64,000 nucleotides of DNA from Petrosia ficiformis. Its lineage: Eukaryota > Porifera > Demospongiae > Haplosclerida > Petrosiidae. Every line of letters starts with the position of its first letter. Within the stretch, counting starts at the first letter, position 1. The notes under the pieces are model-generated. The model worked only from the letters and a program-made list of their open reading frames with translations, did not search any database and was not told where the DNA came from. The stretch is from the NCBI GenBank assembly GCA_947044365.1, contig OX345637.1:13424916-13488915 (forward strand). The letters are read 5' to 3'. Below, piece by piece: positions 29-63,455 of this stretch. The position numbers were made by a program, and so were the translations under genes.

Positions 29-2432
29 CTGTTTGAAAGTATAGTGATGATATAGTAGTCTTTTCTCCATTACCTGCTCCATTATAACCTGCTACTGTTA
101 TACTGATCTCATCACATGGATCAGTATTATTAGGAGCTGTTAACACATAGTAAGTATCAGTAATAAATTCAGATATATTGAACATGATACTAGTAACTGA
201 TATGTTATATCCAGTGATATGTGTCTCAGGAAGAGTGAATGGTGGATTCCATGAGATATTGAGACTTGAGGAATCAACAAACTTATAGCGTACAACAACT
301 GCTGATAACCGATCTAGATTTTAGAAATGGTGGATAATCATGATTTCAGTGGTAAAAGAATGTCATCTTTACCTTGTACCAATAGAATAGCTGTTTCACT
401 TACTACTGTGAATAATTCAATACCAACAAAATTCCAAGCTATACAGTACACTTCAGTATTATTGTATTTTGTCATAGCAGTTGCTGTTAGAGTTCTTCTT
501 ATTGTAGTATCATTCAGATCTTCAGTAAGTTGTTGCATGAAACCTTTATTAACAACAATCTGGTCTGATGCAGACGTGCCATTCACAAAAAACACAATCA
601 GACTTGCTTCCACAGCAACACAGTTGAACTCCACTTCATCACCATTAACAGCATTAACACTGTTAAATACGTTTAATAATTCTGTGAAATAAATACAAGT
701 GCTTGTTCAATCTAGAATATATACACTAACAATTATTATAAACTATATGTGTATTAATTATGACTGCAAATGAGAACTACAGGCGCCTCACTTGCTATAT
801 AATAACATACCCTCTCATGCTTTGTAAAATTCATAAATATTTGATGTATATATAATTTTGCATAATAATGGCTGCGTCTACTCCAGTATAATATGTACAA
901 CTGATGATGCTATAAAGATACATGTGCCCACAACAAACTTGGACAGAATATACCTTGTTGCCAAAAAGGTAAATGGCATCCAAACAAAAGAATACTCAAC
1001 TCTGTGTGCATGAAGTGTGTCAATGATTGAAAATGGAGATTTAAGATTAGTCATACATAATTATCTGTTTTTGCTTCTGTGTTCTATCTGTTAGTGAATG
1101 TGAGTATATACTCTCAAAATTTGTCGATAGCACACTGGATTAGCTGCTCTATAAAATTATTACTAATAAAGTTTTGAACATAACTTTGCTTCTATGGAAT
1201 TCAAGCCACAAATATAGCTTCTCACACTATTAGTTAATGGGCCAAATGATTGTTCTATATGAATGATTGAGTTCATTTACTAATTACTTAATGATGTACA
1301 TCATTGTTCATGACCAATTAATTTACTAGTGGGGGTAGCTGTGGATACATTCCTCATTGTGACCATAATTATACACTTCATACTTCACTTTTAGTAAATG
1401 ATGCATATAAATATTCCAATGTACTATAAATGAATTTAAAGATTACAAATACTTATGGAGTTGTGTACTCTAGGTAACATAGATCACCAACAACATTTTA
1501 CCTTTATTACATGGCCACTATTCAGCAACAAAATTAATGGTACATTGAAGTTGTTTCGAAACTTATATAACCAATCAAAAACTTACATAAGCTTGTGTCT
1601 CTTATGATTTCAGTTTATAATAGAAATGTTGGAACACTGATTCTTAGCTCCAGTCAGCAATATTGGTGATGTTGCTCAAATTGTTTGCTCCTGGACAGAT
1701 ATTTTTAAAATGATCTGCCTTTTGTAAAATGGTCTAAAGAATTAGTTACCATGCTAAAGTAGAGGCAGTAATGGGGTTTGACCATGCTGATGAGACACTT
1801 TTGTTTTGATCTCAGATAAATTGGTAGGTTTTATATTCATTTGGGAAGACAAGAAAATAGAATGAATAGTTGCCATGTTTCTCTGATATGGGCTTTCCTG
1901 ATAGTGCTTTCTCTTAGAGAGTTCTGTAATTGCATGGATAAATGTAGTTAATAGAGGACATGCATAAGTGCTGGTAATGACCTGCTGAGCACTGTAGAGG
2001 CAAATAGAAGGCATGTAAATTGAAACAGTTTCTCATTGGCAAAGTAATGTTAAATAGATGATTACTTTTTAATAGGCGGGAAGTTTCAGAGGAAACTTCT
2101 GTTAGCTTAAATTCGAAGTATAATTATATATTCAAAGATTCTAACTTGATTTGTTAGAAAGAGGAGTTGTTAAGACAGCCAGTGATGTAAAACTCATACT
2201 TCATTAGATGCAGGAAGACTGAAAGAAGCCATGCCTAGCAGATTTCTTACCTTTTTGATAGCTTCTAGTATGGTAGTTAGCAAGCGCTCATTCTTGCCAC
2301 TTCAGAGGAGTGTATACATGCCAAATATGGAAGTATAGTTTTTGAACTACATCGGAGACAGATATTTTTCCCGACTATTTACAGTAACCTTCCCGAAGGG
2401 GGAGGGTGAAATATAATTAGGAAGACAAATGG

Positions 2433-2486
<54 letters not shown>

Positions 2487-4155: not shown

Positions 4156-4246
4156 CTGAAAGGTCTGCTTGCCAGAATAAGTTGTTACGTTTTACATAAC
4201 ATCTGATCGAGAGCTCGGTAAGGCAGACCATATCGTCTTGAATCTG

Positions 4247-7013: not shown

Positions 7014-7057
<44 letters not shown>

Positions 7058-11072: not shown

Positions 11073-14000
11073 ATGACATCAATGAATCTTCTACTTCCAC
11101 TGTTGGCACTTTTCAGTGTTGATCTTACTATAGTCTTCTCAGAGGAACTACGTAAGTATATATACTATTGCCTGTCCACGCAATCTGGTGGGTAGCTGAT
11201 ACATTTTACTTGCTATAAAACTGGAAATCGTGGGTATAGCTAGTGCCATCATACAGTGGGGTCGTTTTGTTTGCCCCAGTTAAGAGGGAGAGCACTGCAT
11301 TTAAATTAATCCTACAAAGTGCTTGGGGACTTTGGAGTGTCGGTAAGCAAGTGGGTAGAAGTAGTACTCCATGTCAGAGAAGGAGCCACAATTGGGGAGG
11401 AGAAAGTAAGCAGTGGCCAAAATATATGCAGCAGAGACACCAGTATTACAAATGAGAAGAATTTTGAAAAACAAGCTCTGTCCTCTAAGATGTATTAAAA
11501 GTACCCAAAATGGGGAAGATACCGCATTTTTAACCCCTACAGTACGCGATACGTATTATTAACCCATACTACACGGGAGGATTTCGAAAATTAGCGAGGG
11601 TCTGCTACCTTCCACTGCTGGTAGTAAACGACAATGATACTCATGCAACCATCAATTTTGTAAATTACAATCTGTTAGTCATTTGAAAATGTCTACAGTT
11701 AGCCACTGTGAGTTTATAATGTTTGGTTGAAATAAGTTATCCGTTTGAAGATAATAATGCTGTAAATAATAACTAAGCCCACCATCTGCAAAGAACAGAG
11801 TGGGGCAACAGCCCCTCTTTCATATCCCTATGATTGCATTCATTAAGCAATTTTATAAAATATGTAAATAAATTTTAACTTGTACACATATGTATAATGA
11901 ATCCGGTTCTTACTCCATCAGTACATAGTACATTATATAATTGTCAGTATAATAATCCCAAGTTCTGAAAGCTCTGAAACTCTGCCCAGTATATATTGAT
12001 CTATCGCAATCACATGATATCTAGTGCGTGAATAGGAGAGTGCTGTATGGGTTAAAAATTATCTAGTATACGTATCCGGTCCTCTTAACCGGTTGATTTC
12101 CCAAAACAGACACTTTTAATATATGCCTCTAAGGGTAAAATTAATTAATAATGAAAACCCGCAATGAATGATCAATACAAAATGAAAATCTTGTTCTAAA
12201 GGGGAAAGTGGTTACTTAGTCTATATTACTGTAGTCCTCTGTCCACATGGTTACTAATTTTGTACATGCTGGCCATGGAACATGTACATAATTAATAACC
12301 TTTGCAATGTTGGTGGTCTAGTTGTCATGCATATCGTACTCATTGTACTCCTCATAAATATACAATTACAAGCAAAGCAGTTACTGATTGTGAATTAAAT
12401 ATGACATACAACTCTGTCAATAGTTTTTTTGCAGCATCCAGAAAGCATAGTTGCTATTAATGGTGAAATAGTAGATTGGCAATGCAAGGCCAAAGGAAGT
12501 GATGAAATCCAGTTTTTAGTAAACAACACATTTGCATCTGACAAACGTGTTGATGATAAAGGATTCGTTCAAACTGTTCTTGAAGATGTCAATAACACAA
12601 CACAACGGATAAATCTAACAGCAACTGCATTAACACAATACAATAATACTGAAATACAATGTGCAGCTTTTATCACTAGTGGAAATGCAACAGTACTATT
12701 CAGTAACATTGGTAACCTGTCGGTACAAGGTAAATCACTAAATATTAACCTGTTTTCTTGTACTAATGTAATATAATATTACAGGTCCATTATCATCAGT
12801 TGGTGGTATATCTCATTATTTTATTGATTCCTCAAGTCTCAATATGTCATGGAATCCACCATTCACTCTTCCTGGGACACATATCACTGGATATAACATA
12901 TCAGTTACTAGTATCATGTTCAATATATCTCAGTTTATTACTGATACTTACTATGTGTTAACAGCTCCTAATAATACTGATCCATGTGATGAGATCAGTA
13001 TAACAGTATCAGGTTATAATGGAGCAGGGAATGGAGAAATGACTACTATATCATCACTATATTTTCCTGAAGGTGATAAATGTTTTGTTGCATTTTCGAA
13101 TTAATCATTACTGACAATGTTGATTATTAGTTGTCAATGTGTATTTATGTTCTTCATAGTGAGTTAACTCATGTCATATTTTTTTCCAGTACCTGCTCTT
13201 GATACCAGTATTCAAGTAACCACTGTACTAGTAGTCACTGGTAAAATGGTAGTAATAAGACTACTTGTGAATGTAAGTAAATGATTATTATATACATGTT
13301 TAATTATGTAATTATAATTATATTATTTGGAATTTGTAAGTGTGACTATGTTAGCCAGAGTAGCAACCCATGTAGAGTGTGTATGTATTTGCCAACTCCA
13401 GTGTATTTTAGTCTCCAACCACTGGTTCACTGTTAACAAATGAAATGGTGTCTGGTGACTTTAGTGCTATTTGGCATTGAGCCTGATTTTGAGTCACCAA
13501 TCAGAATGTTCAAGGTTTGTGGTATTGCAGTTACGAGCTTTTGTAGCAAGCATATGGTTCAGTTTGTAATACTTGCCCAATTCTAACTGTGAAAATTCAT
13601 TTGTCACAACTTTGTGGCTGTATCTATATGCATTCATTCATCTAACAGAGAATGCAATATTATCTGCAGCATCAACTCATTTGTGCCTACATTAGAATAT
13701 ATATCTGATGAATGTCCTCACGATTCTGTGTGAGGTTATGTTTCACATGCATTTCTCAGTATTTAAGCATTGACAATACTTTTGACACCATTTTTAGATT
13801 TTTAAAGTGTTCATTATTGTCATTGTACTTTATGTATATTTCAATTATATCCAGTGGAGTATCTTCATTAGACCAGAGGTTGTTAATTTTTTTGTTTCTC
13901 ATTAACCGCCCGCATCAAAATTCATAGCTGCAAAAAATTTGACCTTTATGTCACTTTCGCATCGCACATTTCACACAATGATTCAACAATAATTACCTTA

Positions 14001-17000
14001 CAAATTTCAATTTTGTGTGGTTGGTTGATACCCTAATCGTTTTTATACTATAGTTCTTACTATTTAGTTCACCATGTCAGTTATATGCTTCTCAAAAGGG
14101 CTAATACTGTATTAATGATGTTTTTCAATTGGTTTTTGAAAGAAATATTTGTGGTTTGTTGTGATACCGACCTGCCTGCATTAATCATTGTTGAACTTTA
14201 GGTGAGAAACTAGAAATCAATAATCCCTGGCCTTAGTTAACACACACCCTCAAATCAATATCATCGGTATTAGTATCAAACCATGGCGTGTTAGGATTAG
14301 TACAACAGTAACTCATATTCATCACAATTCTGTGTTTGACATATAAACTGATGATGAGTTTATACAACATAATTATGAAACTGAAAATAATATGGATAGG
14401 ATGCACATGCAGCCTTTATTTTTCATGTTAATAATGTACCTATATATTAGACAAAAACAACAGTTGATTATAATAATGTCTTTCAAATTCTATCTCAGCA
14501 AACTATGGATGACTGTACACCCTATAGGTGCAAGTATCATGTACCATCTCTTTATTGCTGATCATGTGACCTGTGGCCAATCAGAGTACAGATATTGCGT
14601 CACGTGATTGACCATTAAATCACTTATTGCACACTTTTGCGTGCAATAAATAGTTATTGCACACTTTGCTCACCTCTACTAACGAAGCTGCTTCAACGAC
14701 AGTGGTAGTTCGCCAGATCATCAATAAATCACTTAGAACACACTTGACAGTGGATTGTGTGTTTCAATGTAGCACTTGGGCGGTCAATAAAGGTCTCGTT
14801 TACATAACGCACTCGCCTTCGGCTCGTGCATTATGTAAACTCGACCTTTATTGACCCGCCCTCGTGCTACATTAAAACACGTAATCACGATAAAGTGTGT
14901 TCTAACTATTACATAATCCTGCACGTATGCACTACATGTGCATAATATTATACTAAAAATTATTATTATTCATACTTATATATGCACAGGTTAGTGAACT
15001 ATGTCCTGGTGAATATCCCACTACTACTGACATAAAAATTGCTAATTCAACTGATGATACAGTGGGACAATTTAATGATGTACTGTTAAAAGATGAATCA
15101 CAGACCCATATACTCACTCCTGTGAATAATATTACACTTAAGCTGGATATTAGTTATGCTGTACAAATGTATTTTAGTAATCTGGATGGAGAGTTTAATA
15201 TCACATCTTTTGTTAGCTCAAGTGAGTTACCACTTGGTTGCAACTATGTTTCTATTTTGCCTTCTGTATTATAGTGATGCATGATATTCAGTCAATTGAT
15301 ATAACTAGTACAAGTGGAGAAGTGTGTGTGGTGTGTAGATTCTCTACAAATACTACAGCAGTAGGTTGTGAAGTACAGCTACAAAATAACAATATCATAC
15401 AAACAGGAAGGTTTAATAGAGATGTCAACAACAGCGCTGAGGGTTGCATATTAAATATTATTAACGGATATTATAACTTGTATGTATATGATGTTGAGAA
15501 TGATAACACACTGAGTCAATTACCAGCTATTATTAAGAATCAAGTTTTTGTAGATGAACAAACAACCACATCAGTAAAACCTATCTTCACTTATTCTGCT
15601 ATATCTTCATCTTTGACTATCTCTACTACATCAGGTTAGTGTTACTTTGTGCATATCTCATACATCCATTTTCCTTCTAATCTGTAAACAATAAACAATA
15701 ACACCTGCAGCCAGAGCCAAAACAACAATCATGTCAACTTTGGTTTTGTCAACTGAGTTATTAATTTCTTCACAAGGTTAGTTCACTTGGGTAATACATA
15801 GAATTCATGAATAATCTAATAACTGTAAAATAATTAATTATAATGTTTAGTGTCTGTATGACTTTGTGGATTGGGTGGGGGAGGGATTATATAAGTGTGA
15901 TGTAAAGACAGGTATATGTGTAATCATTCTATACAGTGTCAGAAGTATTTTACTTATGTACTTAAATATTTCAACAATGACTTTACTCTTTATACGTTAG
16001 TCACATATACTTCCACATCAATACCAGATGAAGGTCATTTAAAGGAAATTTTGATAGGTAAGTTGTACGTCACTTTAACATCGACTGTGATTTTCATTAT
16101 TTCTTACTAATAGGTGTCTCTGTATTTGGAGTAGTTGTTGTAGTTGTATTGATATTCTTTCTCCTGATAGCTCTGAGAATTTATTTAAAAAGTGAATATG
16201 AAGTATATGTGTGAAATGATTATATTATATTATATTATATTATATAGAACTGTCCCAAAGAAGGAATGTAGAAAATGAACACCAAAGGTAATTTTTAAAT
16301 TATCTGAGTACAGTATGGTATTAGGGGGGGATGGTCACAGAAGAATAGCCACCCATACTTTACAAATGATGTATTAAATTTACTAGAATACAATATCTAC
16401 AATTTAAATTGGCAATAATCATCAGTGGCTTAAAGAACTGTCAAGGGGCAAACTGATATATTTGATGTACTTGACTTTGTCTTGTTTTTTAACGATTAAG
16501 TTTAATGTACACATCACTATACAGCAATGACTACATTATACTTTCTACTGACAGTTAATGTTCAGAGCTCATAGAGTGACTCACTACATGTGCGGTTTAA
16601 CATTCCACAGTGGCAAGGGTTCTGCACTTCATTTTTGTATTGCTAGTGGCAAGGGTTCTGCACAGCACAGCCAGCATTTTTATATTGCTATGAAATTTTA
16701 ATAAACCACTTCTTTATAGTCCTACATAAGTACAACTCCTTGTCTTTTGCTTTATAGCAGTGTAGGTAATCATGTAGGGCTATTATGGAAGTGGTTTGTT
16801 TAAATTTTAGTTTTACATTAGTATCACCCTGACTTTGTTTGTATATTTTGTGGGTTTTAATATCCCTACATCTGTTTTCAGTGTTATTGAAATAACTATA
16901 TATAATTGATAAGTGATATAGATATATTATAATAGCACTGCAATGAATATTACTATTAATTTTGGTATTCATTTCATTTTCAGAATATTCAAATATTAAC

Positions 17001-38600: not shown

Positions 38601-39003
38601 ATATTACTATTATTCAATTCTTCTGTTGCTGGAATTGTCAAGCTATAAAGTTTATCACCATTTTCTTGTGTGACAGGCATACTTGTCTTGATTCCTTTTG
38701 CCTCGTTTTCGTCAAAGTTTGCATTTACATTGTTAACTTCCCATGACTGTGATTGACAGTTCCTGCAAATACACTGAAAGTATGCAGTATCATTCAATAG
38801 GGTCCTCACTGTAACAGGTCCCTCAACGATTTCTAAGCATTAGTAATAGAATTATATGATTACAATTACAATTATATTTTTGTACTTAATTTTATACTGC
38901 AAGTTGTATAAAAATAGTAACATATTGTACCTGTATCTTGAGCATCTGTGATATTTTGTTGAAGCAACAAACTCAACAGTGCAACGAAAATGATACTCGC
39001 CAT
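35680..39003 (-). CDS. Receptor F: Ig-FN3 membrane receptor
   Basis: Eight exons on the minus strand give about 604 residues: 39003-38931, 38832-38536, 38421-38137, 37934-37858, 37808-37517, 37450-37100, 36901-36668, 35885-35680. They encode a signal peptide (MASIIFVALLSLLL), an Ig domain (FQCICRNC...ITCTIY), FN3, a split FN3-like region with extra cysteines (DCKNTGCETVHLGPC), the cysteine domain (VCIKCTL...SQGCVVIF) and a Ser/Thr-rich stalk. The membrane helix (FCVTAVIIGIMGFIIIALVI) is followed by KKQKKK. The short tail contains PLYENS and CPAYETV. All joints keep the frame. The terminal acceptor is AAG, which is less certain. It starts 83 bp from receptor G in the opposite direction, and its 782-bp last intron holds a fold-back MITE. 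Confidence 0.8.
36427..36566. repeat. Fold-back MITE in an intron of receptor F
   Basis: The outer arms AAGTTATTGACC and GGTCAATAACTT are exact inverses, and the inner arms pair over GCCAAATATTGTGC. The centre (CGTTCTCGGGCTGCAGCCCTCGAAGCG) is GC-rich like the other elements of this class. Confidence 0.85.
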
Positions 39004-48000: not shown

Positions 48001-48466
48001 AGTTCTAGACTATATTAAGAACCACATGTACAATTCCAGAAAGTTCTCTAAGTACATAACAAAATGACATCACACATTAACACCTAAAGTTCTCTAAGTA
48101 CATAACAAAATGACATCACACATTAACACCTAGACAAATCACAATTCCAGAAAGAAATAAAACACCTATTTTAAGGAATACAATATTATCCATGAAGTAC
48201 ATGAAAATCCCTTACACACACACCCTTAATTATAGTGAAAAATGTCTTCAAACCAGTTTCCTGTGTGTGTGTGCTCTGATAATAACTTTTGATACTTTCA
48301 CATTCTTAATAATTATAATACTTCTTTCTTTTGTATGCAGACTAAGTCAGAACCAGTATTACCAAAATTTCAGCCACAGGCTCTAAATCTGACAGACTCT
48401 GAAAATCAGGATCATACAATGTCAACAGAGCACTCTGATGCTATTTTAATGACTGTTACAAGTTAA
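39087..48466 (+). CDS. Receptor G: Ig-FN3 membrane receptor with proline-rich stalk
   Basis: Twelve exons give about 611 residues: 39087-39156, 39214-39477, 39901-40197, 40259-40350, 40711-40954, 41744-42118, 42181-42198, 42299-42458, 42509-42553, 42617-42667, 42723-42816, 48341-48466. They encode a signal peptide (LLLSRLLLILVFLP), an Ig domain (VNFTCAVSDC...TTVHCEVY), FN3, a split FN3-like region, the cysteine domain and a PSPSPNPSP-type stalk. The membrane helix (VIVPIVALIVIVTVVLIPAF) is followed by a palmitoylation-like CYKCM and a tail with NYGSLQQ and EYSVLS. The first of two in-frame ATGs (39087, 39093) was taken. The last intron contains a complete LTR retrotransposon in antisense, so transcription must cross 5.2 kb of it. 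AATAAA lies at 48506-48511, shortly after the stop. The closest relative is receptor H. Confidence 0.8.
41026..41548. mobile_element. Mutator-like MITE with 9-bp target duplication
   Basis: A 523-bp element with about 70-bp terminal inverted repeats starting TAGTCTC(A/G)TC and continuing CAGCTGCACCCCCTCTAAA. CAATCTACC flanks both sides (41017-41025 and 41549-41557). Long inverted ends plus a 9-bp duplication are typical of Mutator-like elements. It sits in an intron of receptor G and is not seen in the matching intron of receptor H. It encodes no transposase. Confidence 0.82.
43006..43314 (-). repeat. 3' LTR of the Gmr1-like element
   Basis: A 309-bp repeat identical by eye to the LTR at 47908-48216. 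It contains a tandem duplication of a roughly 46-bp unit that includes AAGTACATAACAAAATGACA (about 43141-43230). Confidence 0.95.
43315..43332 (-). other. Polypurine tract candidate
   Basis: On the minus strand AAAAGAAGGGGAGAGGAG lies directly before the 3' LTR, where plus-strand DNA synthesis is primed in LTR retrotransposons. Confidence 0.8.
43354..47829 (-). CDS. gag-pol: Gag-Pol polyprotein, integrase upstream of reverse transcriptase
   Basis: A single 1491-residue ORF. The N-terminal coiled-coil region is rich in Arg and Glu (about 33-95), followed by a Gag retrotransposon domain (about 125-275) and two CCHC knuckles (300-313, 338-351). The aspartic protease has LLDTG (389-393). Integrase comes next: an HHCC zinc domain (about 653-693), catalytic D722, D781 and E817, then a GPY/F-like part (GPYTI, about 956). 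Only then come reverse transcriptase (LCVDYRRLN about 1125, YLDD 1224-1227) and RNase H (D1375, TDHRSLEW 1441-1448, NADALSR near the end). The sequence types are Ty3/gypsy, but this order is that of Ty1/copia and of the Gmr1 group. There is no frameshift between Gag and Pol. Confidence 0.95.
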   Translation of the reverse strand: MITRSGRTYTHRDRMGDEEGQIENTSITEMMRLLIDDRRRREEEIVQERRQREEEMTLHRQTLNEERERREQEAAQQMKTMQYQMELLAKLLEESTSSREGGSRSSASTINETDVRLSKLTEADDIEAYLTTFECMMIAYEVDKSRWVFKLAPQLTGKAQHAYAAMPVAESGKYDEVKAAILRRYDIDEETYRQRFRSAARKMPEETNRELATRLQDLFRKWTKDCDTMEKLAERMIMEQLLNTMPSSVRIWVSERKPKTSQEAGQLADDYQQARRRTQNGVNGNQPQEIKKEATTLKRCHTCNQVGHLARDCPKGNKSIGKMLGKDRPWKTEGDFRCFNCNQKGHTSKNCPSSTLFCGTRIAGGNRAAGVPAIARQGLVEGQKAENILLDTGCARTVVRDVFVPPEKILEGKATTICCAHGDTVLYPLAEVEIEVDGLKLIVEAAVSKSLPMDVLLGTDVPELLDMLKGNCTADEAMVVMTRARVQKREEEANTRQREMELDVQLNNLQDSSEKLQEVLENVTQEEDQLPDKEESCPGSEFHDDLFSTGRERRRLSRSQKRAVRHQYQCLQRKSTYGILDMSSAELQRLQSEDPTLQYIKKEAEEAKRDQFFIRNKLLYRYWTPRNQRGDGEPQEQLILPMECRKPVLHLAHEIPLAGHLGKEKTAKRILQRFYWPTIYQDVKEHCRTCESCQKSTSRRVQPAPMIPLPIMSEPFHRIAMDIVGPLPRSRSGNQYILVVCDYATRYPEAVPLRSIDAGTIAEELIRLFSRVGIPEEVLTDQGSNFTSQLLKEIYSMLHVSPIRTSPYHPQTDGLVERFNQTLKAMIRKTAVTEGKDWDKLIPYLLFAYREVPQASTGFSPFELLYGRTVRGPLDIVRESWEAKKRSTESVVSHVLSIREKLSKMAEVVNQNMSDAQRHQKLWYDRNARTREFSNGDQVLVLLPSSTSKLLAQWQGPYTITSRIGTVNYEVDMNDKRKRKRIFHINMLKRWHVPSNSVFFAQDQTDSDQNDEVLVWNDSEGDSDDRPLIGDQLTTEQQHEMKLLLGKYSDVLQNLPGKTEVTKHHILTGNATPVRLPPYRLPHAYRETVQAELKEMLENGIIEVSTSDWASPIVLVKKKDGSLRLCVDYRRLNSVSQFDAYPMPRVDDLIDQIGQAKFISTLDLTRGYWQVPVAEEARHKTAFITPFGLFQFIVMPFGLSGAPATFQRLMDHLLRGSEEFALAYLDDLVVYTSSWEDHLQCVRLILDKLHRAGLTAKPKKCQFGMSECVYLGHVVGSGVVRPETSKVEAVKLFPAPKTKKEVRTFLGLTGYYRKFIPSYSAIAVPLTDLTKKLAPSLVNWTKECQEAFQKLKDILCSAPILKSPDFDRQFTIQTDASNRGVAAVLSQYDDSGDDHPVAYFSRKLQPREESYSTVEKECLAIKLGVQAFRVYVLGRQFTIETDHRSLEWLDRLKENNARLTRWSLSLQPYQFEVKYRSGKKNSNADALSRIT
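47890..47907 (-). other. Primer binding site candidate
   Basis: Directly after the 5' LTR the minus strand reads TTTGGTGTCAGAGGTGGG, the position and TGG-type start expected for a tRNA primer binding site. The tRNA was not assigned. Confidence 0.6.
47908..48216 (-). repeat. 5' LTR of the Gmr1-like element
   Basis: Identical to the 3' LTR as far as can be read. It starts TGTAAGGGATTTTC on the minus strand and ends CTATTACA. Confidence 0.95.
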
Positions 48467-49105: not shown

Positions 49106-49275
49106 AAACTCTTAATCAATGTCAATATAAGTGAAGAAAGGAATGGAAATACAATGTAAAATAAATTGTGATTTATATACACTAACGATAAGATAAGTTG
49201 TCATATATATGTTAACAAAGTAGATGGAAACTTTGATGAAAACAAGGGAAAGGGAATCAAGTATATTTATAATTA

Positions 49276-49550
49276 GATGGTACGTGTCATATTACTATTA
49301 TTCAATTCTTCTCTATCTAGTCTTGTTAACTTTCCATGACTGTGACTGAAAGTTCCTGCAAATACTTTGAAAATATGAAGTATCATTCAATACAGTCCTC
49401 ACAGTAACAGGTCACTCAATGATGTCTATATATATATATATACTATTATAATTACAATTTATGCACATTTGTACTTTAGACTACCTGGATCTTGAGCATC
49501 TGTGGTATTTTGTTGTGGAAACAAACAGCTATATAGTGCTAGTGCAATGG
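49276..49550 (-). pseudogene. Decayed first exons of a receptor F copy
   Basis: The Ig-exon remnant (49276-49427) matches receptor F near 38582-38832, with shared blocks such as ATATTACTATTATTCAATTC and TTCCTGCAAATAC. The signal-peptide remnant (about 49481-49550) shares ATCTTGAGCATCTGTG and TATTTTGTTG. Mutations remove the start region and frame. Its head-to-head position relative to H repeats the F/G arrangement. Confidence 0.75.
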
Positions 49551-49646: not shown

Positions 49647-50984
49647 AAAAACTATGAAGTTAGTACTGTTAACACTGGTATATCTTCCTTGTCTTAAAAG
49701 CTGTTGTAAGTTGTTTCATTAGTTGCATCATGTATACATATACTTCATGTATATATTTATAGATTTTAGTGAAGATCCATCATCTATAAATGGAACATTG
49801 CAGCAGATAGTGAACTTTACTTGTGCAGTGTCTAACTGTAGCCGACCTCCAACAATTTCAGCTGATGATAGGATATTTAAATGTAAACAACCAGGCACAT
49901 GTAATCTAAGCTATTGTCGGAGTGTGTGTACAGTGACATTAACTGAAAATGATAACAATACTAGAATCCGCTGTGAGACAGATGAATTTCTATTTTCTAA
50001 AAATGCCACAATTTTAGTTCAAAGTTAGTTAATTTGTCACATTTGATTACCTTAAGCCTATACATTTAATTGTGTGTAAGCAGTTTTAGCGACTAACATA
50101 ACATAATAGCTAAAATTAGTGCAAACAAAAAATTATATTTGGTGATCATCAAATTATGCATATCAGACATGGCTCAGAAATTTGCTACAACACTAACTAC
50201 ACAATTAATGGTAGGCTTAATGATATTCTAAATACAGGATACCATGGCAAAATGAAAATTGAGTATTTGCTATTTCAAAAAATGATGAAAGAGTTAAGAA
50301 TAGTTAAACATAAGGTATCAAAAGGTCTTCATTAATTTTTACTAATGAAGATTTTCAAGTCAAATGATTTAGATGAAGACTTTTGAGTCAAAAGAACAAT
50401 CTAGTTTTTAAATGACGTGAAGACATGCATATTGAGTATAATTCATATTACTTTTTGTATACACTATAGCTGAACTTGATGCAGTACTGAATATTAGCCG
50501 TTCAAATGCAACATCAAAGATCATCGAGTTCTCATGGTCATCACCTTATATATATGAAGGCATTGATATCTCATATGATGTGTTATTATTGTCAAACAAT
50601 ATGTCTTTTGCTATACAAAACGAAACTGTGAATAAGACTGTTTTGGAGCTCGATACTACTTCATTTAAGCATGAATTCTGTAGTGAAGTCAACCTTACCA
50701 TCACTCTTAAAGCAGAAACACTTACTGGACCACAAAAAAGTTGGATTGGAATTTTACCTCATCGTGAGTATAATTGTAATTATGTTTATAAAGATAATTT
50801 GTTGTATATACAATTATAGCTCCAACTAACGATCTGATAAATTCTGAGACTGATATACCACATATTACAAAACTATCAAATGGCAATGCCTGTATTTCTT
50901 TTAGATTTAAGGTCAGTTATTGTTGTTATACCATAGCAGTGTTGGTTTTCAAATGGGAGATACCATGTGATGTCATTATCATAA

Positions 50985-52126
50985 TCAGAGAGTACGGTAG
51001 TACTCTCTATGTAGGGATGGCACGGAAAAAAAATGGCCGCCCATACATTTCAATTGCAAGTGATGACCTGAAATCTCTGGTAATATATACAGATAGGTTT
51101 TAATACACACATACCTATTCATATCTAGTGTTTTTACGACTACCAACATCTTCTAGATGGCCAAAGATTGTCGTTAAGGTAGAGAACCGGCGAGTGGCAA
51201 AACTGGCAAAATCTTCATCATAATATTAATATTAATATTTTTCAGACAAATCATTTTTTTGTTTGTTGAACTATCACAATGATTCTAGCACCATTCCAGT
51301 CGCATTTATAGTAGAATTCTGGTCTACATGTATCGAGATAATATCTACAGATGCTATGAAAGAAGACAGTCTCAACGACTACAAAGATTTGATCTCGAAT
51401 TGGACGCCATTTTCCTCAATGGAATTTAATTACGCATGCGCATTCGTGTACTCAGAACATGGAAGCTGAAATGCTTGTTGCATTGGAATTGTGTGAGCAA
51501 ATACATTCTTATAATAATGAATTATTAATATTAAAGCCATTGTATAATAATATTGTATACTATGATAACCATTGGAATACTGAATGGTTGACACAGTGAC
51601 TGACACTACTTCTTGTAGGATGGCAGACAGTGCTGTAAGTGAAATAGAGAATATACATCATCTGTAAGTGAAAGAGAATGATAATCAATACATAAATACA
51701 AAAGACTGACTTTTATTGATGAACAAATTTTAATGCATTTATTTTTGTAAGATTCCATAATGATAGTATTTCTGTAATCTACAAAACATATTCACACCAT
51801 TCAGAAAAAAAAACAATGGAAACAAGAATAATAAAAAACATTTTCAATAAAAATGAAAGAAGATGTAGGGATGTCAAAACCCAAAAAGCATGCAAACAAG
51901 GTTGGGAAGCTAACATAGGACCCAAAATCACTTCCATATAACCCTACATAAGTATATACAGCTCTTTGTATTTTGTTTCATAGCAGTGTAAAAACTTATG
52001 TAGGGTTATATGGAAGTGATTTTAGGTCCTATGTTAGCTTCCCAACCTTGTTTGCATGCTTTTTGGGTTTTGACATCCCTACATCTTCTTTCATTTTTAT
52101 TGAAAATGTTTTTTATTATTCTTGTT
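50985..52126 (+). mobile_element. Three-copy repeat unit, copy beta
   Basis: Starts CAGAGAGTACGGTAGTACTC at 50985, directly after a stretch (AAATGGGAGATACCATGTGA) that is uninterrupted in the matching intron of G. It contains the open frame 51263-51469 (DSSTIPVAFIVEFW, MKEDSLNDYKD) and ends with a long fold-back element. It has no nested insertion, so it serves as the reference copy. Confidence 0.7.
51821..52126. repeat. Long fold-back element, nearly perfect 133-bp arms
   Basis: The arms 51821-51954 and 51992-52126 appear to differ at one base only. They carry AGATGTAGGGATGTCAAAAC and CTTCCATATAACCCTACATA. It forms the right end of repeat copy beta. Confidence 0.9.
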
Positions 52127-52948
52127 ATAGTTTATTTTAGTGATGGATTCTGTGTAAAGTATGTTCCAATCAACATAGTATGTTTCACACCCCAACATCA
52201 CACATTTTGCATTATTCTTGCTGTCCTGCTGTGTATATTCCACATTTATTCTTATAGTTCTATAATTGGTATTTACGGTTAATGAATGTGCTACTCAATA
52301 TAAATGAGTGATTTCCTAGAACCACTCATTAGTAAATCTAATATGCAGTTTTTGTGTTTGTAATGATTATTCTCTTTCTATCATTGCATTAATAGGAGTT
52401 CCAGAATGGTTCTTGTCTTGGTAGAAATACTGCTAAAGCAAGTCTAACTGTTCATTATCATTACAATGATATTGCAAAAGATTATTTGTTAAACACATCA
52501 CACATTGTCAAAGATCGAATATGTCTTGTGACTTGTGATAATGTTATATTGATTGGAGGAGATCTCTTATCAGTGCAAATAAGCACTGGGTAATGATGCT
52601 GGATTTACTACACAAAAATCCCTTCTTAACTTCAGTAAGTTATCTCAATAATAATAATATTTTTATTAGTATAATTGTATTTATTTTTGATGGTGGATGA
52701 TTGCCATTGTAACCATTCATGTACTTGGGAATTATAAGCCAACAAACTATTGCTGTATACAGTAATTAAATACTTCCATGGTTAGTTGATATCAGTTTCA
52801 AGTTGTTATTTTGTATCCTCCCATTCATCGCTTAAAATCTTAAAACTTAATTCCTATTGCTCATAATGTAACTATACAATAATATATATTTAACTACAAC
52901 AAACTGCTTCCATGGTAGCAAATGCTATAAGTACATGTTATGTCATAC

Positions 52949-53028
52949 CACGAGTGCTACATGTATATCAGGCTTATAATCACTGAGCCCGAAGGCAACG
53001 TAATTATAAATCTGATATTGCACAAGTG
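52949..53028. repeat. Small fold-back element, CCCGAAGG centre
   Basis: The arms CACGAGTGC...ATCAGGCTTATAATCAC and GTAATTATAAATCTGAT...GCACAAGTG pair imperfectly around GAGCCCGAAGGC. In an intron of receptor H. Confidence 0.6.
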
Positions 53029-53190
53029 GGCAGCTAATATATTTCCTGCACTTCAAAGCATTTTGGCCACACTATAAATATTGTTTATACCGAAAACCTA
53101 AGGGCATGTATCACAAACCGCGATGAACATATGTATCATAGTTTATGTCATGGTCAAAAGCTTTGAAATCATGACATTATTGCACATATA

Positions 53191-53236
<46 letters not shown>

Positions 53237-53410
53237 CCCGATATGGCGAAACATCAAAGTAAACCACAGGTCTATAAATCACATATAACTGTGGTCAGAT
53301 ATAAAACCTGCCGTCGACACAGACTACAAGCTTACCTTCTCCAAAGTGAAGAAAGAAATGTTCAAGAAGCAACAGCTATCAACAAAGATTTTGTCTTTCT
53401 GGAAATATAA

Positions 53411-53524
53411 TAATTATAACATCTACTCGTGCTATATCAAATTTATAATCACCTCACCCTCAGGCCTATGGCCCTGGTGTTTGGTGATTATAAATCTGAT
53501 ACAGCACTTGTAGGTGTGTTATAA
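53411..53524. repeat. Fold-back element related to 52949-53028
   Basis: The outer arms run TAATTATAACATCTACTCGTGC against GCACTTGTAGGTGTTATAATA, with inner arms TTTATAATCACC and GGTGATTATAAA. The centre, CAGGCCTATGGCCCTG, is GC-rich. It shares the TTATAAATCTGATA motif with the preceding element. Confidence 0.7.
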
Positions 53525-55043
53525 TAAATACATACATAAAATCATATGTAAATATAAAATTATATGTATATCTATTTATATATGTTTCATTTGAAGTATA
53601 TCCTTTTGTATTCATAAGGTACTTTCGACACTCAAAGAGTCACTATTTATTATAACAGTAAGGAACCCTGCTTTAATGTAACGTATGCCGACAACTCAAA
53701 TGTAAATGGAAGTCATTTTATTATATCTGGAGCTAATAATAGTGACTATGAGAATTATACAAATATTTATAGACATAATGGATCACTGTCAGTCACAGGG
53801 TGTTTCTCTTGGCTTTACAATGGAGTATATGATATATGTATATCGGATATAGGTACCGGTAAATGTGCTATTAACCTAACATCAGTTACAATCACAAATA
53901 ATCCATCTCCTAGTCCATCTCCTAGTCCATCACCTCCCAATCCATCTCCTAGTCCTGGCCCACCTCCCAATCCATCTCCTAGTCCCGGTCCACCTCCTAA
54001 TCACAGCTATGATTTTCCTACATGTAAGTAATAACTGATATGATTCATTTTTGTTAACATTCTCTCATTATAGATGTTGTCATCATTATAACAGTACTAG
54101 TGCTTTTAACTGTGGTATTTACTAGTACTGTAATAGCTGTAGTCACTGTGTTAGTTGTAATACATTACAAGAAAATTGTACAAACACCTACATCAGTTGA
54201 TGGATCTTTGCATCCTACACCAGAAGAAGGTTGATAGTTACTTAATAATTAACATATGATAATAACTATTTTCCTACTTTATAGACAATAGGCAGAATGG
54301 TACTGATAGAATTGTCACGACTTCTAATTTAAATTATGGTTCTATTCAAAACCAGTAAGTAATGCAGTTCACTTGTTACTATGGTATACTATATCTTCAT
54401 CAAATAGGAATGAGGACGCTGATATAGAGTTGACAGAGTCTACATATGTACCACCATCGGATGAGGTATGTGACATTTTATATAATAATTATTATTATTA
54501 TATTTTCATATTAGAATCATTATAATTACAAGAATAATAAAAAACATTTCCAATTTATTTGCATTGCATTAAATAGTACCTGAGCTAGTTACATACCTCT
54601 TATCAACTCTGATACTAATTATCTTGTATCATTATCTTTCCTGTACAACAGCTACCAGAAGGATATGTTTATTCACCTTCAATTGACGCAACTGAAACAG
54701 TTAGTTCTACTATACTATGTAAACTAGGGTTGGGCAATATTGAAAATACATCTTGAGCCAATTAACGAAGTGTTAATGCTGTTATTGACAATATAATCAT
54801 AAATAATTTGCACCATTGCCTAAAAGAGAGAACTGCACAGTGCCAAATAAGAAGCTCTATGGGCCAATGGTGTGCCATATGAACTTATTAAAAACATTGA
54901 TTGCAATGTATGTGAATTATTTCCCAACCTAATGTCAATCATTAATTAATAATACTATAATTTTTCATATCTAGACTGAGTCAGAACCAGTATTTTTACA
55001 ACCTACTAAAGAAGAAGATTCAATCAACAATGATCGAACTTAA

Positions 55044-56602: not shown

Positions 56603-57640
56603 TTACTGTATTACTGTCAAATAAACAGGTGCAGTTGTTTGTCGTACAGTGTCATAAACAGGAGTATTAGTTTGTATGGAGTGGATATCTTGATAAGCTG
56701 GATTCTTGCTAAGTAGTACTCTATGATTAAAACTTCTTTCACTGAGTATTATTGTATCTCTTGGATCAGCATAAGCAGGATTAGTTTGTACTGATACTGA
56801 TTGTTCTGAGAGAATACAATTGCTTATGCATACAGGAACAGTACTACAATGCTCATCCATCCATTCTATCCCACATTCAACTAGTACATGAAGTAATTAT
56901 TTAATGTACTAATAATTGTATAACCTGATTTTTTATGGAATCTCAAACAGGTATAGACTACAACCACTACAACAGTCAATGCTATCAATCCTAATATATA
57001 AACAGAATAATATGATGGTTGTAGTATTAATTATTTACAAACACACCAACTATAGCAGAAGCAGTAACAGTGGTTATGATGATAGTATTATGAGTTCTAA
57101 TTTCATGAGCTGGAGTCATTGTAGTAGAAACTAAAGAAACACAATAATATCGAGGTTACGTTTTAAATAATCTGTACAATTCACTAACTGTAAGATGACA
57201 ATATTGATGTGAGTGAGGTTGTAATGAAAGTGGATGTAGTGGAAATAGTATCTGTTGGTGTTGATGATATTGTTGTTTGTTCATCTACAAAGACTTGATT
57301 CTTAATAATAGCTGGTAATAGACTCAGTGTGTCGTCATTCTCAATATAATGTACATACAAGTCATAATATCCAGTAATAATATTTGATATACAACCCTCA
57401 GCAATGTTGTTGAAGTTTCTATCAAATCTTCGCGATAATGTCACAGTGCTATTTTGTATCCTTAGTTCACAGCCAACTGCAATAGTATTTGTATAGAATC
57501 TACACACCACACACACACGTGTCCAAGAGTACTAGTTATGATTGAGTGTCATGAGTTGCTGAGGAATTGTAATTATTGATAGAAATTTAGAAATATAAGT
57601 ACTCTCCATCCACATTACTAAAAGACACTTGTATAGTATA
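56603..57640 (-). pseudogene. Truncated receptor relic with NPxY tail
   Basis: On the minus strand the last four exons are open and phase-matched: cysteine domain and stalk (about 57516-57189), 57130-57047, 56990-56925 and 56880-56603. They encode part of the cysteine domain (CVVCRFYTNTIAVGC), a membrane helix (ASAIVGLIALTVVVVVVYTC) and a tail with two NPAY motifs, PVYDTV and PVYLTV. The cysteine domain is closest to that of receptor B. Upstream, a GT-repeat expansion of 2 bases near 57511-57522 shifts the frame to a stop, and only a scrap of the FN3-like region remains (about 57597-57635). The Ig and signal-peptide exons are absent. It is probably a dead receptor, although the intact tail could be spliced to another start. 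Confidence 0.7.
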
Positions 57641-57756
57641 TATCATGTATTAAATAGCATGATAACTTGTGCCCCCAGTATCTCTGCCACTGCAATTGAA
57701 TCCAGGCTCAACCCACTAAGGTGCGTTGTTGCTATGCAACTACAAACATCCAAAAC

Positions 57757-58745
57757 TGAAGCCAAATAATACTGATCCATGTGACAAGATCAATGTAACA
57801 GGATCAGGTTGTAATGGAGCAGGGAATGGAGAAATGACTACTATATCATCACTATACTTTCCATCAGGTAATCATAAGGATTAATGTTTAATTTACCTAT
57901 TGAATATGATGTATAATTCCCAAAATGAGCACTATTTGGTCAGCATGTATTACTAATTATGTGTTGATTATACAATAGACCTTTTCACCTTGAGCTAAAG
58001 TATGCAATTACGTACCAGCTAGGGGTATTTTGTATTTCTTTCAATATAGAAATACTCTGTTTTCAGTGCATCCACTTCCCTCTGATCCTCGAGTATACCA
58101 GTCAAATATTCTTAAAAGCAATCATACTGAACACAAGTTTTTACCGTCAGCCATTCTAGCTCCTGTGAAAACAGCAGATGTTACTCATTTCGAAATTAGT
58201 GTGTTAATATTAGTATTTAATGTTAAGATATTGATGTTCATGATGAATATAGGATTATTTGTAATAATGATATAAACAACAATGTTAGCAATTACTTTAG
58301 TAAAATAGTAAATAATGACACATAGGGCAATCCCTTTATGATTGCTTTTCCATGAGTTTGACGTATGTTTATATATTGTTTATGTCACTTATGTGAGTAT
58401 GTGTTGTATATGTAGTGTGTTATTCCGGTAAACTGTGTCAATTAATGGGTGTGGCATATAACAGAACACAACAGAGCTCAGCAGACCAGCAAGGAGAAAA
58501 CTGCTTGTAGTTTTATGTAGAAACTGGAACTAATAGCTGTTTGATTACTCAATGTTGGACACCAGAAAGCAATCATAGAGAGACTTTCATCTATGTTTAT
58601 CTTGTTTGTCTTTGTAATTAATAACTTTATTGTGACATATTAGTGTATAATTATTAACTTAATTTCTCAGCAGTTGATTCGTAATCATTAATCAAGTGGT
58701 CACTAGTAATATGGTAGAAATAACCGTCTCAGTGATTGTAAGTAA
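57757..58745 (+). pseudogene. B-like receptor exon remnants, plus strand
   Basis: 57757-57868 matches the 3' end of the FN3 exon of receptor B (AATAATACTGATCCATGTGA; GGAGAAATGACTACTATATC) and keeps a GGTAAT donor. 58676-58740 resembles the next B exon (13190-13272) but has an in-frame stop early. Between them lies the dispersed repeat related to 10625-11050. A short open frame at 58030-58275 has no recognisable domain. Confidence 0.6.
58317..58630. repeat. Dispersed repeat related to 10625-11050
   Basis: Shares GTCAATTAATGGGTGTGGC, ATTGCTTT-CCAT and AGAAAGCAAT-ATA with the sequence upstream of receptor B. It lies between two B-like exon remnants. Confidence 0.45.
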
Positions 58746-60260: not shown

Positions 60261-60647
60261 TCATGTTGTGTATGTTGCTTATTGATATAATAACCACAGA
60301 AGCCATCCACATGACTTGGGCTGGAAATCAGGCTAAGATTCTTATCACCAACTTCAAATTGATTGATAATTGATTAACAATATGTCTTGTGATACAAGTA
60401 GGTAGTCACCTACTTGTATCACAAGTATTCAAACATTTGCCCTTTACTTTGTGGTGAATCATTTTCTGCAGATGATGGTAGATGGCTGGAATCCAAGATG
60501 CTTTACAGCTTCTTTTCTTACCTGTTTTTGTGGTGTGAATCGGTGTCAATGCAAAGTGGAACAGTAAGTATAAACATGGCTACTTTATGTATTATTGTAG
60601 AAGTCTTTGTATGGCTTACAGAATCATACAATATTTGTTATTATAAG
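60261..60647. other. Gap between repeat copy gamma and receptor I exons
   Basis: A short perfect inverted pair around GATACAAGTAGGTAGTCACCTACTTGTATC (60392-60421) lies here. A 90-codon open frame at 60414-60686 overlaps the first exon placed for receptor I but is in a different frame. No exon joins to receptor I in phase. Confidence 0.4.
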
Positions 60648-63455
60648 GTGATATTGGTTTTGTTACTGGTAAAACTGGTAATGTGAATTCGGAATCTAAA
60701 GAAGTATCCACATATGAGGTAAATATACTCAGTCTCTATACTATACTATTGAAAATCCATAATATATTGATTCTTGATACTCATACACAAATATTGATCT
60801 TGAGACATGAACAAAACTTAACATAACAAACATGACAAAAAAATTGTGTTCTCACATTATTTCTTCCACAATTTGAAGTGTAATGCAAATTAGTTTTGTC
60901 TTGTCATCGTTGTAAACTTCAACAATAAAGAACAGCTAAGTCATGTTTCTATTTTTCCTCTCATTTCAACATTAGCTTCTAAACTATCCATTTTCCACTG
61001 CTTTTTTTTTTAGGCTATATAATGTTTTTGTGCCAAAAGTCTGGCATGCAGCGGTGAGTTGAAAAAATCGTCATAACTTCATAACTGTCCCATATTTTGA
61101 TACTTGTATAATTTGAAGTCTGTTGGTAGCTTGATCAATCGCCAATGTTGTGCAGACATTTTGGGAACACAGACACACAACATCACTACAGTAACCCTCT
61201 GCTTCACCTGTATGCAGGCTTGGGTTAATTAACTGGCAACTTATTTTAACTGATGTCAAATTTATGATGATAGGTGTATCTGTATTAGTGAACCATGCAT
61301 TGTATTGTCAATAGAGGAGTCGGAGTAAATGTACCACTCTTTTATTCTCTTTCATATGTTTCATATCACAATATATACTTTATTGTATTTTGTTTTACAG
61401 ACAAAACCCAAACCTGATCTTGCTGTTACTAAACGGAAGAACAGACTGATACCTCCAGCACCAGAGGACAACGTTGTCTATTCTGAATTGATGACGAAGG
61501 ATCAAGCTGATATTATGCGTCAACAACTGGAACAGAAACCACCTCCTAATGATGATGTTGAGATCAGTTCATCCTCTTTTCAAACCAGTGTTACTGTTAT
61601 ACCCCCTGGTATCCATGGTGATAGCACTTTCAAAGAAGAACGAATTCGTCTGTCAATAAACAAAGTTGAGGAAAGACCACAAAATATTGAGGAATCATTT
61701 GAGAATCAAAATCCTGTTTCTCATTGTATCCCAACACCTGAAGATAATCAGAATGATATCCCTCCTCCAGTACCAGCTCGTGTATTGTTACAAACTAGTC
61801 CACGAAGGACACCTCCTATTCTTCCACCAACCACACCTACTCCAACCTTCTCACTTGTCCTCTTCCTCTCAAGTGAGTCAGAGTGGTGATATTATTCAAT
61901 ATTCACAGGACGAAATGGAAAAGGAAGAAATATTCAAGCCTGAACCAGGACACTACCAGAAAGTACGTCAAGTAAGTGAGAGATAACTGTCATAATGCTT
62001 AACATAATGGTATGATAATCTATTTTTTAAATTCCTTCTTTTTGTATAGGAACTCAGAAAGTTTCTCAGGACATTCCAAAAGGACAATTACTAGTAAGTA
62101 CCAAAGTGATACCCAATACATTAGAGAGCATGTGTCCATATATCTTATACTACACTTCTAAAGCAGGGTGATTTTGTACATGTATGTTACTAGCACCCTT
62201 GTTAGCTCACTGATAATTAATGTTGCACCCTTATTGTAATAATAGAAAATAATTGTCTATTGGAAGCTGTTTAATGTGCCAATCTTCATAGATTTCCAAA
62301 ACGTTTGGGAACAGACAGACAGACAGACAAAGCGATTACAGTAACCAAGGGTTAATGATAATAAATAGCAGAGCCTAAAATATTCCTTTATCTAAGGTTA
62401 CCTATCAACTAAGGCTGGGATAATTAACCGATTAACCGATGAATCAATCGATATTGAAAATTCTTTTTATTATTGATAGCAAGTCTGTGATATCGATTAT
62501 GCTAATTATTCCAAAAGGCAAGTATGTGACAGCAAATAATGTACAATATGGAAGTGACAGGAAGCCTTTTTGAGCCGATTCCCAGCCCCACTATCAACAC
62601 TTAGACATTTACACCTACATGGACAATATTTAACTGTAGTATGTGTTGAAATGAATATGAAACCACCCAATCTACATTTGTCTACCAACAGCACCAGAGA
62701 TTCTGTCCAAAAACTAAAATGAGTTTGGTCTAATCAATATATTCTCCTAGGCATTATAATGAGGTTATCTTGCTCATCCAAGATCATATTATGCCCTGTA
62801 ACAAGCAGTACTTGTTTACCTAGCTAGCAGTCCCTCTTAGTACTCCTGGCCCATTGTCTCAATAGAGAGACCAGATACTATAACTCACACTATTTATGTG
62901 GTACTACTCTAGCACTTACAAAAACAGAACACATTAAAGTAATAGCCAAATCCAATAACCATTCCCACATCACTAAAGCACAATGCCTAACAATGTAGTA
63001 TTTTCATTCTATATAATTAATCATTGTTTTAGCACATTAATTATTATCTACTTTTACTGTACCATGGTGATAAGTGTTCCCGGTGGCTTTCACTACAAAA
63101 TTTTGAACTACTTGTAAAGTTGTAATGTTTTTGTTTTGTGGTGTAAAGTAACAGGTAGTGTAGTGGAAGATCAATCGGTTCAATCCCGTATCTACCTGAG
63201 TATTACTTAGTATGTCAAGTATTATACTCCATTTAAGTGCTTTTCATGTATTTGTATGTATAAAATGAATGTTTCTTATTATAGGATGATGTGTCTTCAG
63301 GTAGTACTGAGGAGTCGAACTTGGTCTCTAAAGAAACAACCACTTTGCAGGTAAGAGTTAAAATGTTGTGGTTAAAATTTTGTGCCAGCAGAAAGTTAAC
63401 CACAAATGTATTGACTATATAGGTGCTCCAGCTTTTACCAGGCAATGAAGCATAA
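60648..63455 (+). CDS. Receptor I: 3' part, cytoplasmic tail with ITIM-like motif
   Basis: Exons placed: 60648-60718 (phase 1 to 0), 61401 to about 61971, 62058-62093, 63285-63350, 63423-63455 with stop. The tail starts TKPKPDLAVTKRKNRL, matching the T-K/E-S/P-x-P start of tail exons in G and H. It contains NVVYSELM, which fits V-x-Y-x-x-L, and proline-rich stretches (IPPPVPARV; TPPILPPTTPTPT) of SH3-binding type. Within the long exon the frame used up to about 61856 differs by one base from the frame open over 61909-61971, so an unusual short intron or a frameshift is present. The ectodomain and membrane exons were not found; the repeat copy gamma and B-like remnants lie where they would be expected. 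It may be the 3' end of a damaged gene. Confidence 0.5.

What the first reader, a model, noticed from the sequence alone, without database searches (positions are those of the whole stretch)
29..63455. Cluster of shuffled Ig-FN3 receptors with interchangeable cytoplasmic tails
At least six receptors plus several relics share signal peptide, Ig, FN3, split FN3-like region, cysteine domain, stalk and membrane helix, but the tails differ: ZU5-UPA-Death-Death (B), ITIM-like (E, I), short tyrosine tails (F, G, H) and NPxY (56.6 kb relic). Mixed orientation, recent duplication and decay resemble birth-and-death evolution of paired or allorecognition receptor clusters such as cnidarian Alr genes. The exon structures are seen in the sequence; the immune or self-recognition role is inference.
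Basis: partly seen in the sequence, partly recalled or inferred. Interest (0 to 1): 0.9.

Follow-up and report, generated by a model that had tools for sequence, protein, structure and literature searches.

The report
Sponge receptor cluster with swapped tails
The window is one piece of a roughly two-million-base cluster of cell-surface receptor genes in a sponge, in which a fast-changing outer domain sits beside one almost unchanging exon and is recombined with different signalling tails, which makes the cluster a candidate for how a sponge tells self, other sponges or microbes apart.

Summary
The assembly matches Petrosia ficiformis, chromosome 2, by size and GC. B, E, F and G have the stated exon plan and open frames as far as modelled; H is frameshifted; A is cut by the window edge and has laminin-G-like exons instead of the Cys exon; I and J are remnants. 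B-type exons recur at C2 13.22-15.18 Mb: 98 of 105 FN3, 85 of 89 Ig, 79 of 117 Cys and 53 of 53 J-tail matches (30, 49, 53, 54). New: in 15 paired genes the FN3 exon is nearly identical even at synonymous sites (mean dS 0.085), while the Ig exon beside it (0.73) and both flanking introns have diverged (68, 69, 123). Ig distances do not track the exons downstream of FN3, and two recombinants are plain (84, 104). Three tail classes hang on one ectodomain type. I read it as a fast-evolving recognition-receptor complex with FN3 as homogenised exon and probable recombination joint. Positive selection on Ig is not established. Allorecognition is plausible but untested.

The parts
1..706 (-). A: receptor cut by the window edge; Ig exon within ORF 341-706, FN3 exon within 1-320 and continuing left; x5 and laminin-G-like exons lie outside the window
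12327..12389 (+). B exon 1, signal peptide
   Evidence: start and donor chosen by eye
12435..12729 (+). B Ig exon (variable module)
   Evidence: Unc5_NetrinR_N 25.2 bits on the ORF, cut-off 27
12785..13072 (+). B FN3 exon, 288 bp (homogenised module)
   Evidence: fn3 24.1 bits, cut-off 25
13190..13272 (+). B exon x4
14990..15221 (+). B exon x5
15275..15634 (+). B Cys exon, predicted FN3-like beta sandwich
15711..16191 (+). B stalk exons and membrane helix
16248..22735 (+). B juxtamembrane exons at 16248-16287, 22555-22615, 22693-22735
22926..25649 (+). B tail: ZU5, UPA, Death, Death (exons 13-18)
26863..27174 (+). Further Death-like ORF downstream of B
   Evidence: Death 16.9 bits, cut-off 22.6; 44% identical over 73 aa to B's last exon
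30442..35400 (+). E: Ig-FN3-x4-x5-Cys-acidic stalk-TM-tail with IMYGTV; last modelled exon is partial
35680..39003 (-). F: Ig-FN3-x4-x5-Cys-stalk/TM-short tail
   Evidence: one close relative of its Cys exon at C2:13.307 Mb
39087..48466 (+). G: Ig-FN3-x4-x5-Cys-stalk-TM-tail; last exon 48341-48466 lies beyond a retroelement in the last intron
49172..49411 (-). Relic of an F-type Ig exon; its two pieces match on opposite strands
49654..55043 (+). H: paralogue of G, frame broken in exon 5
56603..57531 (-). J: relic with Cys exon, stalk, TM and tyrosine tail
57720..57881 (+). FN3 scrap, inverted relative to J
61401..63455 (+). I: tail exons (VVYSEL, proline-rich) without a recognised ectodomain; the first exon's family recurs in the cluster; later exons read by eye only

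Best explanation
A multigene complex of single-pass recognition receptors in a demosponge. SHOWN (from sequence): a family with 60 loci of adjacent Ig and FN3 exons in one 2-Mb stretch; a divergent Ig exon beside a near-invariant FN3 exon; conflicting genealogies upstream and downstream of FN3; at least three tail classes on the same ectodomain type. INFERRED: the outer Ig domain binds a variable ligand; the FN3-like domains and the stalk are spacers; the tail sets the output, which is phosphotyrosine signalling through YxxI/V, NPxY or ITIM-like motifs, or a death-fold platform in the ZU5-UPA-Death form. INFERRED: short-tract gene conversion keeps FN3 exons alike, and recombination in that stretch of identity joins one gene's Ig to another's x5-Cys-TM-tail, so binding and output are reassorted over evolutionary time. 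The ligand is either another sponge's surface (allorecognition, about 0.35) or microbes and symbionts (about 0.3); adhesion or another role takes the rest.
For: Copies and location. Mean Ig dS 0.73 against FN3 dS 0.085, 105 pairs of 15 genes; identity 0.46-0.58 in the flanking introns where alignable, 0.87-1.00 (rounded) across the FN3 exon; fourfold sites differ 780/2428 in Ig against 250/4293 in FN3, Ig higher in 103 of 105 pairs. Recombinants in the flanks: g-83 has B's Ig (dS 0.10) with g-27's Cys (0.06) and ZU5 (0.15); g118 has an Ig nearest g131 (dS 0.37; 1.23 to g67) with g67's x5 (0.04), Cys (0.06) and tail (0.05). Mantel, 8 genes: Ig-x5 r 0.25 p 0.11, Ig-Cys r 0.08 p 0.32, x5-Cys r 0.55 p 0.019. 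Tails: of 90 FN3 or Cys loci, 38 J, 10 I, 3 ZU5, 2 mixed, 37 none of these. FN3 relatives alike within other groups of contigs, and one of them at most 57% identical to the 72 matches listed in this genome.
Against: No expression, binding, haplotype or population data; flanking genes were put together by strand and proximity. The 15-gene sample required both exons to pass profile thresholds, and searches with a conserved query favour similar FN3s. Diversifying selection on Ig is not established: median pairwise dN/dS 0.64, dN above dS in 4 of 105 Ig pairs but in 22 of 105 FN3 pairs; site model p=0.009 with 3% of sites in a gappy loop. In g-83 against g-27 the closeness does not last through the tail (Death exons dS 0.53 and 0.56), and x5 is intermediate (0.20 against 0.29 to B). 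The Mantel test has 8 genes. Crossover within FN3 is inferred, not seen. 37 of 90 loci show none of the three tails searched. E, F, G and H do not share the homogenised FN3.
Confidence: 0.68

Rival explanations
1. The complex is the sponge's allorecognition locus: Ig variants compare self with neighbour, and the tails give fusion or rejection.
For: Cluster of variable Ig receptors with ITIM-like, tyrosine and death-fold tails; Hydractinia Alr genes are clustered Ig-superfamily genes and Botryllus FcoR genes are Ig receptors with tyrosine-motif tails in one locus (passages); sponges reject allografts (abstract).
Against: No link to graft outcome; no polymorphism data; far more loci than the at least two genes known to control outcome in Hydractinia; Ig dN exceeds dS in only 4 of 105 pairs.
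Confidence: 0.35
2. The complex senses microbes or symbionts, like other large invertebrate receptor families; diversification is an arms race.
For: The species hosts a rich microbiome (112 binned bacterial genomes, abstract passage); large NLR and SRCR expansions in sponges (passages); size and decay of the family.
Against: No known microbe-binding domain seen in the exons scanned; no induction data.
Confidence: 0.3
3. FN3 sameness reflects strong purifying selection on its nucleotides (DNA or RNA element), not gene conversion or recombination.
For: 64 of 94 third positions are invariant in 15 copies; identity is confined to the exon.
Against: FN3 median dN/dS is 0.51, so protein constraint is not extreme; no unusual RNA fold in B's copy (z -0.71); no Rfam match in the window; groups of contigs from elsewhere have their own versions.
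Confidence: 0.15
4. Ordinary tandem expansion of adhesion receptors, with the FN3 exon spread recently by duplication and no recombination mechanism tied to it.
For: Close duplicates exist, such as the L030 pair and B with g-83 at Ig.
Against: Introns on both sides of FN3 look like those of old paralogues; Ig and downstream exons conflict.
Confidence: 0.12

Closest known systems
Hydractinia Alr family (allorecognition complex)
   Same: Clustered single-pass Ig-superfamily receptors, many models that look like pseudogenes, low identity among members (passages of PMC11067881)
   Different: Different phylum; no homology tested or shown; here Ig plus FN3-type domains, a homogenised FN3 exon and a ZU5-Death tail class; allodeterminant role untested
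Botryllus FcoR genes in the fuhc locus
   Same: Ig receptors with ITIM, hemITAM or core Y-x-x-I/L/V motifs in one locus (passages of PMC12065747)
   Different: FcoR has a sushi domain and three Ig domains; no sushi match on spliced B and G ectodomains
UNC5 netrin receptors
   Same: Ig ectodomain (B's Ig exon is weakly like the Unc5 N-terminal profile) and ZU5 plus Death in the tail
   Different: No thrombospondin match in B; one Ig; multigene cluster; the ZU5 exon is 60-66% identical to 15 long copies outside the cluster on C12, C1 and C4, the one examined lying behind ankyrin repeats and a Roc-like stretch
Mammalian KIR and LILR clusters
   Same: Birth-and-death Ig receptor cluster with differing tails (recalled)
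   Different: No homology tested; tails here include a death-fold class
Sponge aggregation factor genes
   Same: Sponge allorecognition candidates in the literature (review passages and reference titles; link to aggregation factors partly recalled)
   Different: Their domain content as recalled (Wreath, Calx-beta) is not seen in the exons scanned

Membership tests
Alr family | Single-pass receptor with Ig-superfamily ectodomain | tested here: inconclusive
   Ig-like by sequence, below Pfam cut-offs; best PDB profile hit shark V-NAR E=0.06; no structure model of the Ig exon obtained
Alr family | Many related genes clustered in one complex | tested here: met
Alr family | Alleles decide fusion or rejection | not testable with these tools
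   needs grafts and crosses
Alr family | Common descent with cnidarian Alr | not tested
   no Alr sequence was compared
Botryllus FcoR | Sushi domain beside Ig domains | tested here: not met
   no sushi match on the spliced B and G ectodomains; E and F scanned as single exons only
UNC5 | ZU5 and Death in the tail | tested here: met
   (ZU5 24.4 bits, cut-off 21; Death 30.7 bits, cut-off 22.6); receptor B only
UNC5 | Thrombospondin type 1 repeats in the ectodomain | tested here: not met
   no match on the spliced B ectodomain
Sponge Ig-TIR receptors | TIR domain in the tail | tested here: not met
   no TIR match on the B tail or on the E and I tail exons; F, G, H and J tails were not scanned
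ITIM-bearing receptors | [SIVLT]xYxx[ILV] in the tail | tested here: met
   E IMYGTV, I VVYSEL; none in F, G or J; the pattern also hits inside B's Death-like exons, and the 64-kb I relative lacks VVYSEL

The most novel reading that the evidence does not exclude
This is the long-sought allorecognition complex of a sponge. It makes diversity through a homogenised FN3 exon that serves as a standing recombination joint, so that fast-evolving Ig exons are dealt out to ITIM-like, phosphotyrosine or death-fold tails; a similar FN3 pattern recurs in other lineages.
Probability: 0.22. Interest if true: 0.96.

Novelty: new variant of a known kind. Interest (0 to 1): 0.8.

Why it matters
No title or abstract start in ten listings described such a complex. 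The library holds open-licence papers only and I read passages of five papers, so print elsewhere is not excluded. A chromosome-scale sponge locus with a defined variable exon, a conserved joint and a small set of outputs would make self/nonself recognition in an early-branching animal testable by grafts and genotyping. The 288-bp island of identity between old introns is a clean case for studying gene conversion and exon swapping as a source of receptor diversity.

Tried and rejected
Considered and rejected: UNC5 orthology for B (no thrombospondin match; the ZU5 exon is shared with 15 long copies outside the cluster, and the one examined lies behind ankyrin and Roc-like stretches). RNA structure as the reason for FN3 sameness (B's copy only). 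Positive selection on Ig: median pairwise dN/dS 0.64, dN above dS in 4 of 105 pairs; M2a against M1a p=0.009 but only 3% of sites, in a gappy loop, with recombination present, so not claimed. E, F and G as members of the homogenised set: G-type FN3 has 2 matches in the genome, G and H (50 of 50 candidates scored); F's Cys exon has one close relative; E's exons were not searched on their own.

Rows dropped: one search used 64 of 89 Ig, 81 of 105 FN3 and 62 of 117 Cys matches (weak, partial and distant ones left out), 53 of 53 J-tail and 5 of 34 ZU5 matches; one search used 18 merged places from 24 I-tail matches, 6 of them not assigned to a gene. In one search, 19 Ig and 19 FN3 exons passed thresholds and 15 pairs were kept. 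One search used 10 of 15 Cys exons, leaving out E, F, G, H and J. In one search I kept 27 of the 38 fetched relatives and dropped 11 (mostly more divergent), which raises within-group likeness; the grouping was mine, made after seeing contigs and sequences; the 25 own-like proteins are the best-ranked; only 3 of 100 columns are fixed within all four groups and differ between them. The strand test left out one locus with both J and I tails.
Full report
WHERE IT IS. The window lies at C2:13,424,916-13,488,915 of a 191.2-Mb assembly in 29 contigs. Contig length 15,999,405, total span and the window's GC match chromosome 2 (16.0 Mb, 33.5% GC) of Petrosia ficiformis odPetFici3.1, 191.25 Mb in 35 scaffolds (passages of PMC12648040). 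The identification rests on that match; the scaffold count differs.

THE CLUSTER. Own-genome searches: the B FN3 exon gives 105 matches (150 of 227 candidates scored), 98 of them in C2 13.22-15.18 Mb, 6 weak ones elsewhere on C2 and 1 on C1; an Ig exon gives 89 (121 of 121 scored), 85 there; the Cys exon gives 117 (150 of 155 scored), 79 there and 38 more distant ones elsewhere on C2; the J tail 53 of 53 there (62 of 62 scored); the I tail 24 of 24 there (29 of 29 scored). These counts include fragments. Chaining the typed subset gives 60 loci with adjacent Ig and FN3, 40 with no in-frame stop flagged in either; some flagged stops may lie in intron sequence taken in by the match.

THE FN3 EXON. 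For 15 paired genes the mean pairwise values are Ig dN 0.46, dS 0.73; FN3 dN 0.053, dS 0.085; Cys (10 genes) dN 0.14, dS 0.25. Sliding identity in 40-base steps is 0.46-0.58 just outside FN3 on both sides where alignable, 0.50-0.78 in Ig, and 0.87, 0.95, 0.98, 0.98, 1.00, 0.97, 0.88 (rounded) across FN3. At fourfold sites 780 of 2428 comparisons differ in Ig and 250 of 4293 in FN3; Ig is higher in 103 of 105 pairs; the longest run identical in all 15 is 31 bases in FN3 and 6 in Ig. As DNA the 40 scored copies (of 102 candidates) are B itself and 39 at 95-98%, all on C2. An identity peak that falls off towards the exon edges is what short-tract gene conversion between diverged neighbours would leave; that is inference.

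EXON SWAPPING. Among B and genes in the flanks, put together by strand and proximity, g-83 pairs with B at Ig (dS 0.10) but with g-27 at Cys (0.06) and ZU5 (0.15), where it differs from B by 0.47 and 0.57; x5 is intermediate (0.20 to g-27, 0.29 to B), and the Death exons are far from both (0.53 and 0.56 to g-27, 0.64 and 0.68 to B). g118 differs from g67 by dS 1.23 at Ig but by 0.04, 0.06 and 0.05 at x5, Cys and J tail; its Ig is nearest g131 (0.37). Over 8 genes with all four exons, Ig distances do not track FN3 (r 0.12, p 0.27), x5 (r 0.25, p 0.11) or Cys (r 0.08, p 0.32), nor FN3 x5 or Cys (r -0.22, -0.16), while x5 and Cys track each other (r 0.55, p 0.019). In g118 the change of partner lies between Ig and x5, where FN3 sits; in g-83 between Ig and Cys. 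With 8 genes the lack of correlation alone would be weak; the two recombinants carry the claim.

TAILS. In the four J-type tails read, NPAY occurs twice each, with a run of PxYxx[ILV] and no strict ITIM. The I tail has VVYSEL in the window copy, not in the 64-kb relative. The ZU5 exon has 34 matches, 5 in the cluster; 15 long copies at 60-66% lie on C12, C1 and C4, and weaker ones on C1, C12 and C2 2.56-3.10 Mb. The one C12 copy examined follows ankyrin repeats and a Roc-like GTPase stretch (Roc 24.5 bits, cut-off 27), so capture of that tail from a cytoplasmic family is likely, its direction inferred. Of 90 loci with FN3 or Cys, 38 have a J tail, 10 an I tail, 3 ZU5, 2 mixed, 37 none of the three. 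J tails lie mostly on the minus strand (31 of 38) and I or ZU5 tails on the plus strand (13 of 14), Fisher p 1.4e-6; tandem duplication makes the loci dependent, so the p value overstates this.

OTHER SOURCES. The protein collection holds FN3 relatives at about 44-63% identity over most of the query on contigs other than the own-like ones. 27 of 38 fetched, grouped by me, are alike within groups (means 0.90, 0.82, 0.71; own-like 0.86) and less alike between groups (0.51-0.73). One of them has 72 matches listed in this genome (150 of 254 candidates scored), none above 57%, so it is not from this assembly. This fits concerted evolution in several lineages; species names are not given, the third group is loose, and only 3 of 100 columns are diagnostic. 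The Ig query found 22 proteins, 45-99% identical.

SELECTION. Median pairwise dN/dS is 0.64 for Ig, 0.51 for FN3 and 0.59 for Cys; dN exceeds dS in 4 of 105 Ig pairs and 22 of 105 FN3 pairs. M2a beats M1a at p=0.009 with 3% of 98 codons at omega 2.9 (17 sequences), the two best sites in a gappy loop near the second cysteine. I do not rest the case on this.

MECHANISM. Shown from sequence: divergent Ig, homogenised FN3, conflicting genealogies, several tail classes. Inferred: ligand binding by Ig, output by tail, recombination through FN3. Not shown: expression, ligand, polymorphism.

VERDICT.

Noticed in passing
window 43006-48217, minus strand: A retroelement with one 1496-aa ORF, integrase ahead of reverse transcriptase, and a SCAN match in gag (order recalled as Gmr1-like); its two end repeats are identical over 310 bp, so it is young; it sits in the last intron of G.
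   Followed up: partly
window 27785-28852, minus strand: Intronless gene like dimeric dihydrodiol dehydrogenase; fragmentary copies, several with stops, to its left on C2 (13.35 and 13.41 Mb) and at C2 1.60 Mb.
   Followed up: partly
C2 7.40-7.55, 10.40-11.36 and 13.00-13.03 Mb: Distant relatives of the Cys exon form further groups on the same chromosome.
   Followed up: no
C2 9.18-9.31 and 12.80 Mb: Close relatives (79-85%) of the laminin-G-like exon of receptor A.
   Followed up: no
C2 13.22-15.18 Mb: Tail class goes with strand: J tails mostly minus, I and ZU5 tails mostly plus.
   Followed up: partly
C2:13842450-13850700 and C2:13826269-13827434: Places where an I-tail exon and a ZU5 exon follow each other on one strand, as if one gene had both tails; the first I exon has stops flagged.
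   Followed up: no
L030 and L029: Neighbouring gene pairs in opposite orientation with very similar Ig exons a few kilobases apart; only the L030 pair was measured (dS 0.03).
   Followed up: no
C1:28106428-28106622: A single B-type FN3 relative (62% over 69 aa) on another chromosome.
   Followed up: no
window 4200-10100 and 16.7, 20, 51-52, 59-60 kb: Short inverted-repeat elements and small dispersed duplicates, as of miniature transposons.
   Followed up: partly
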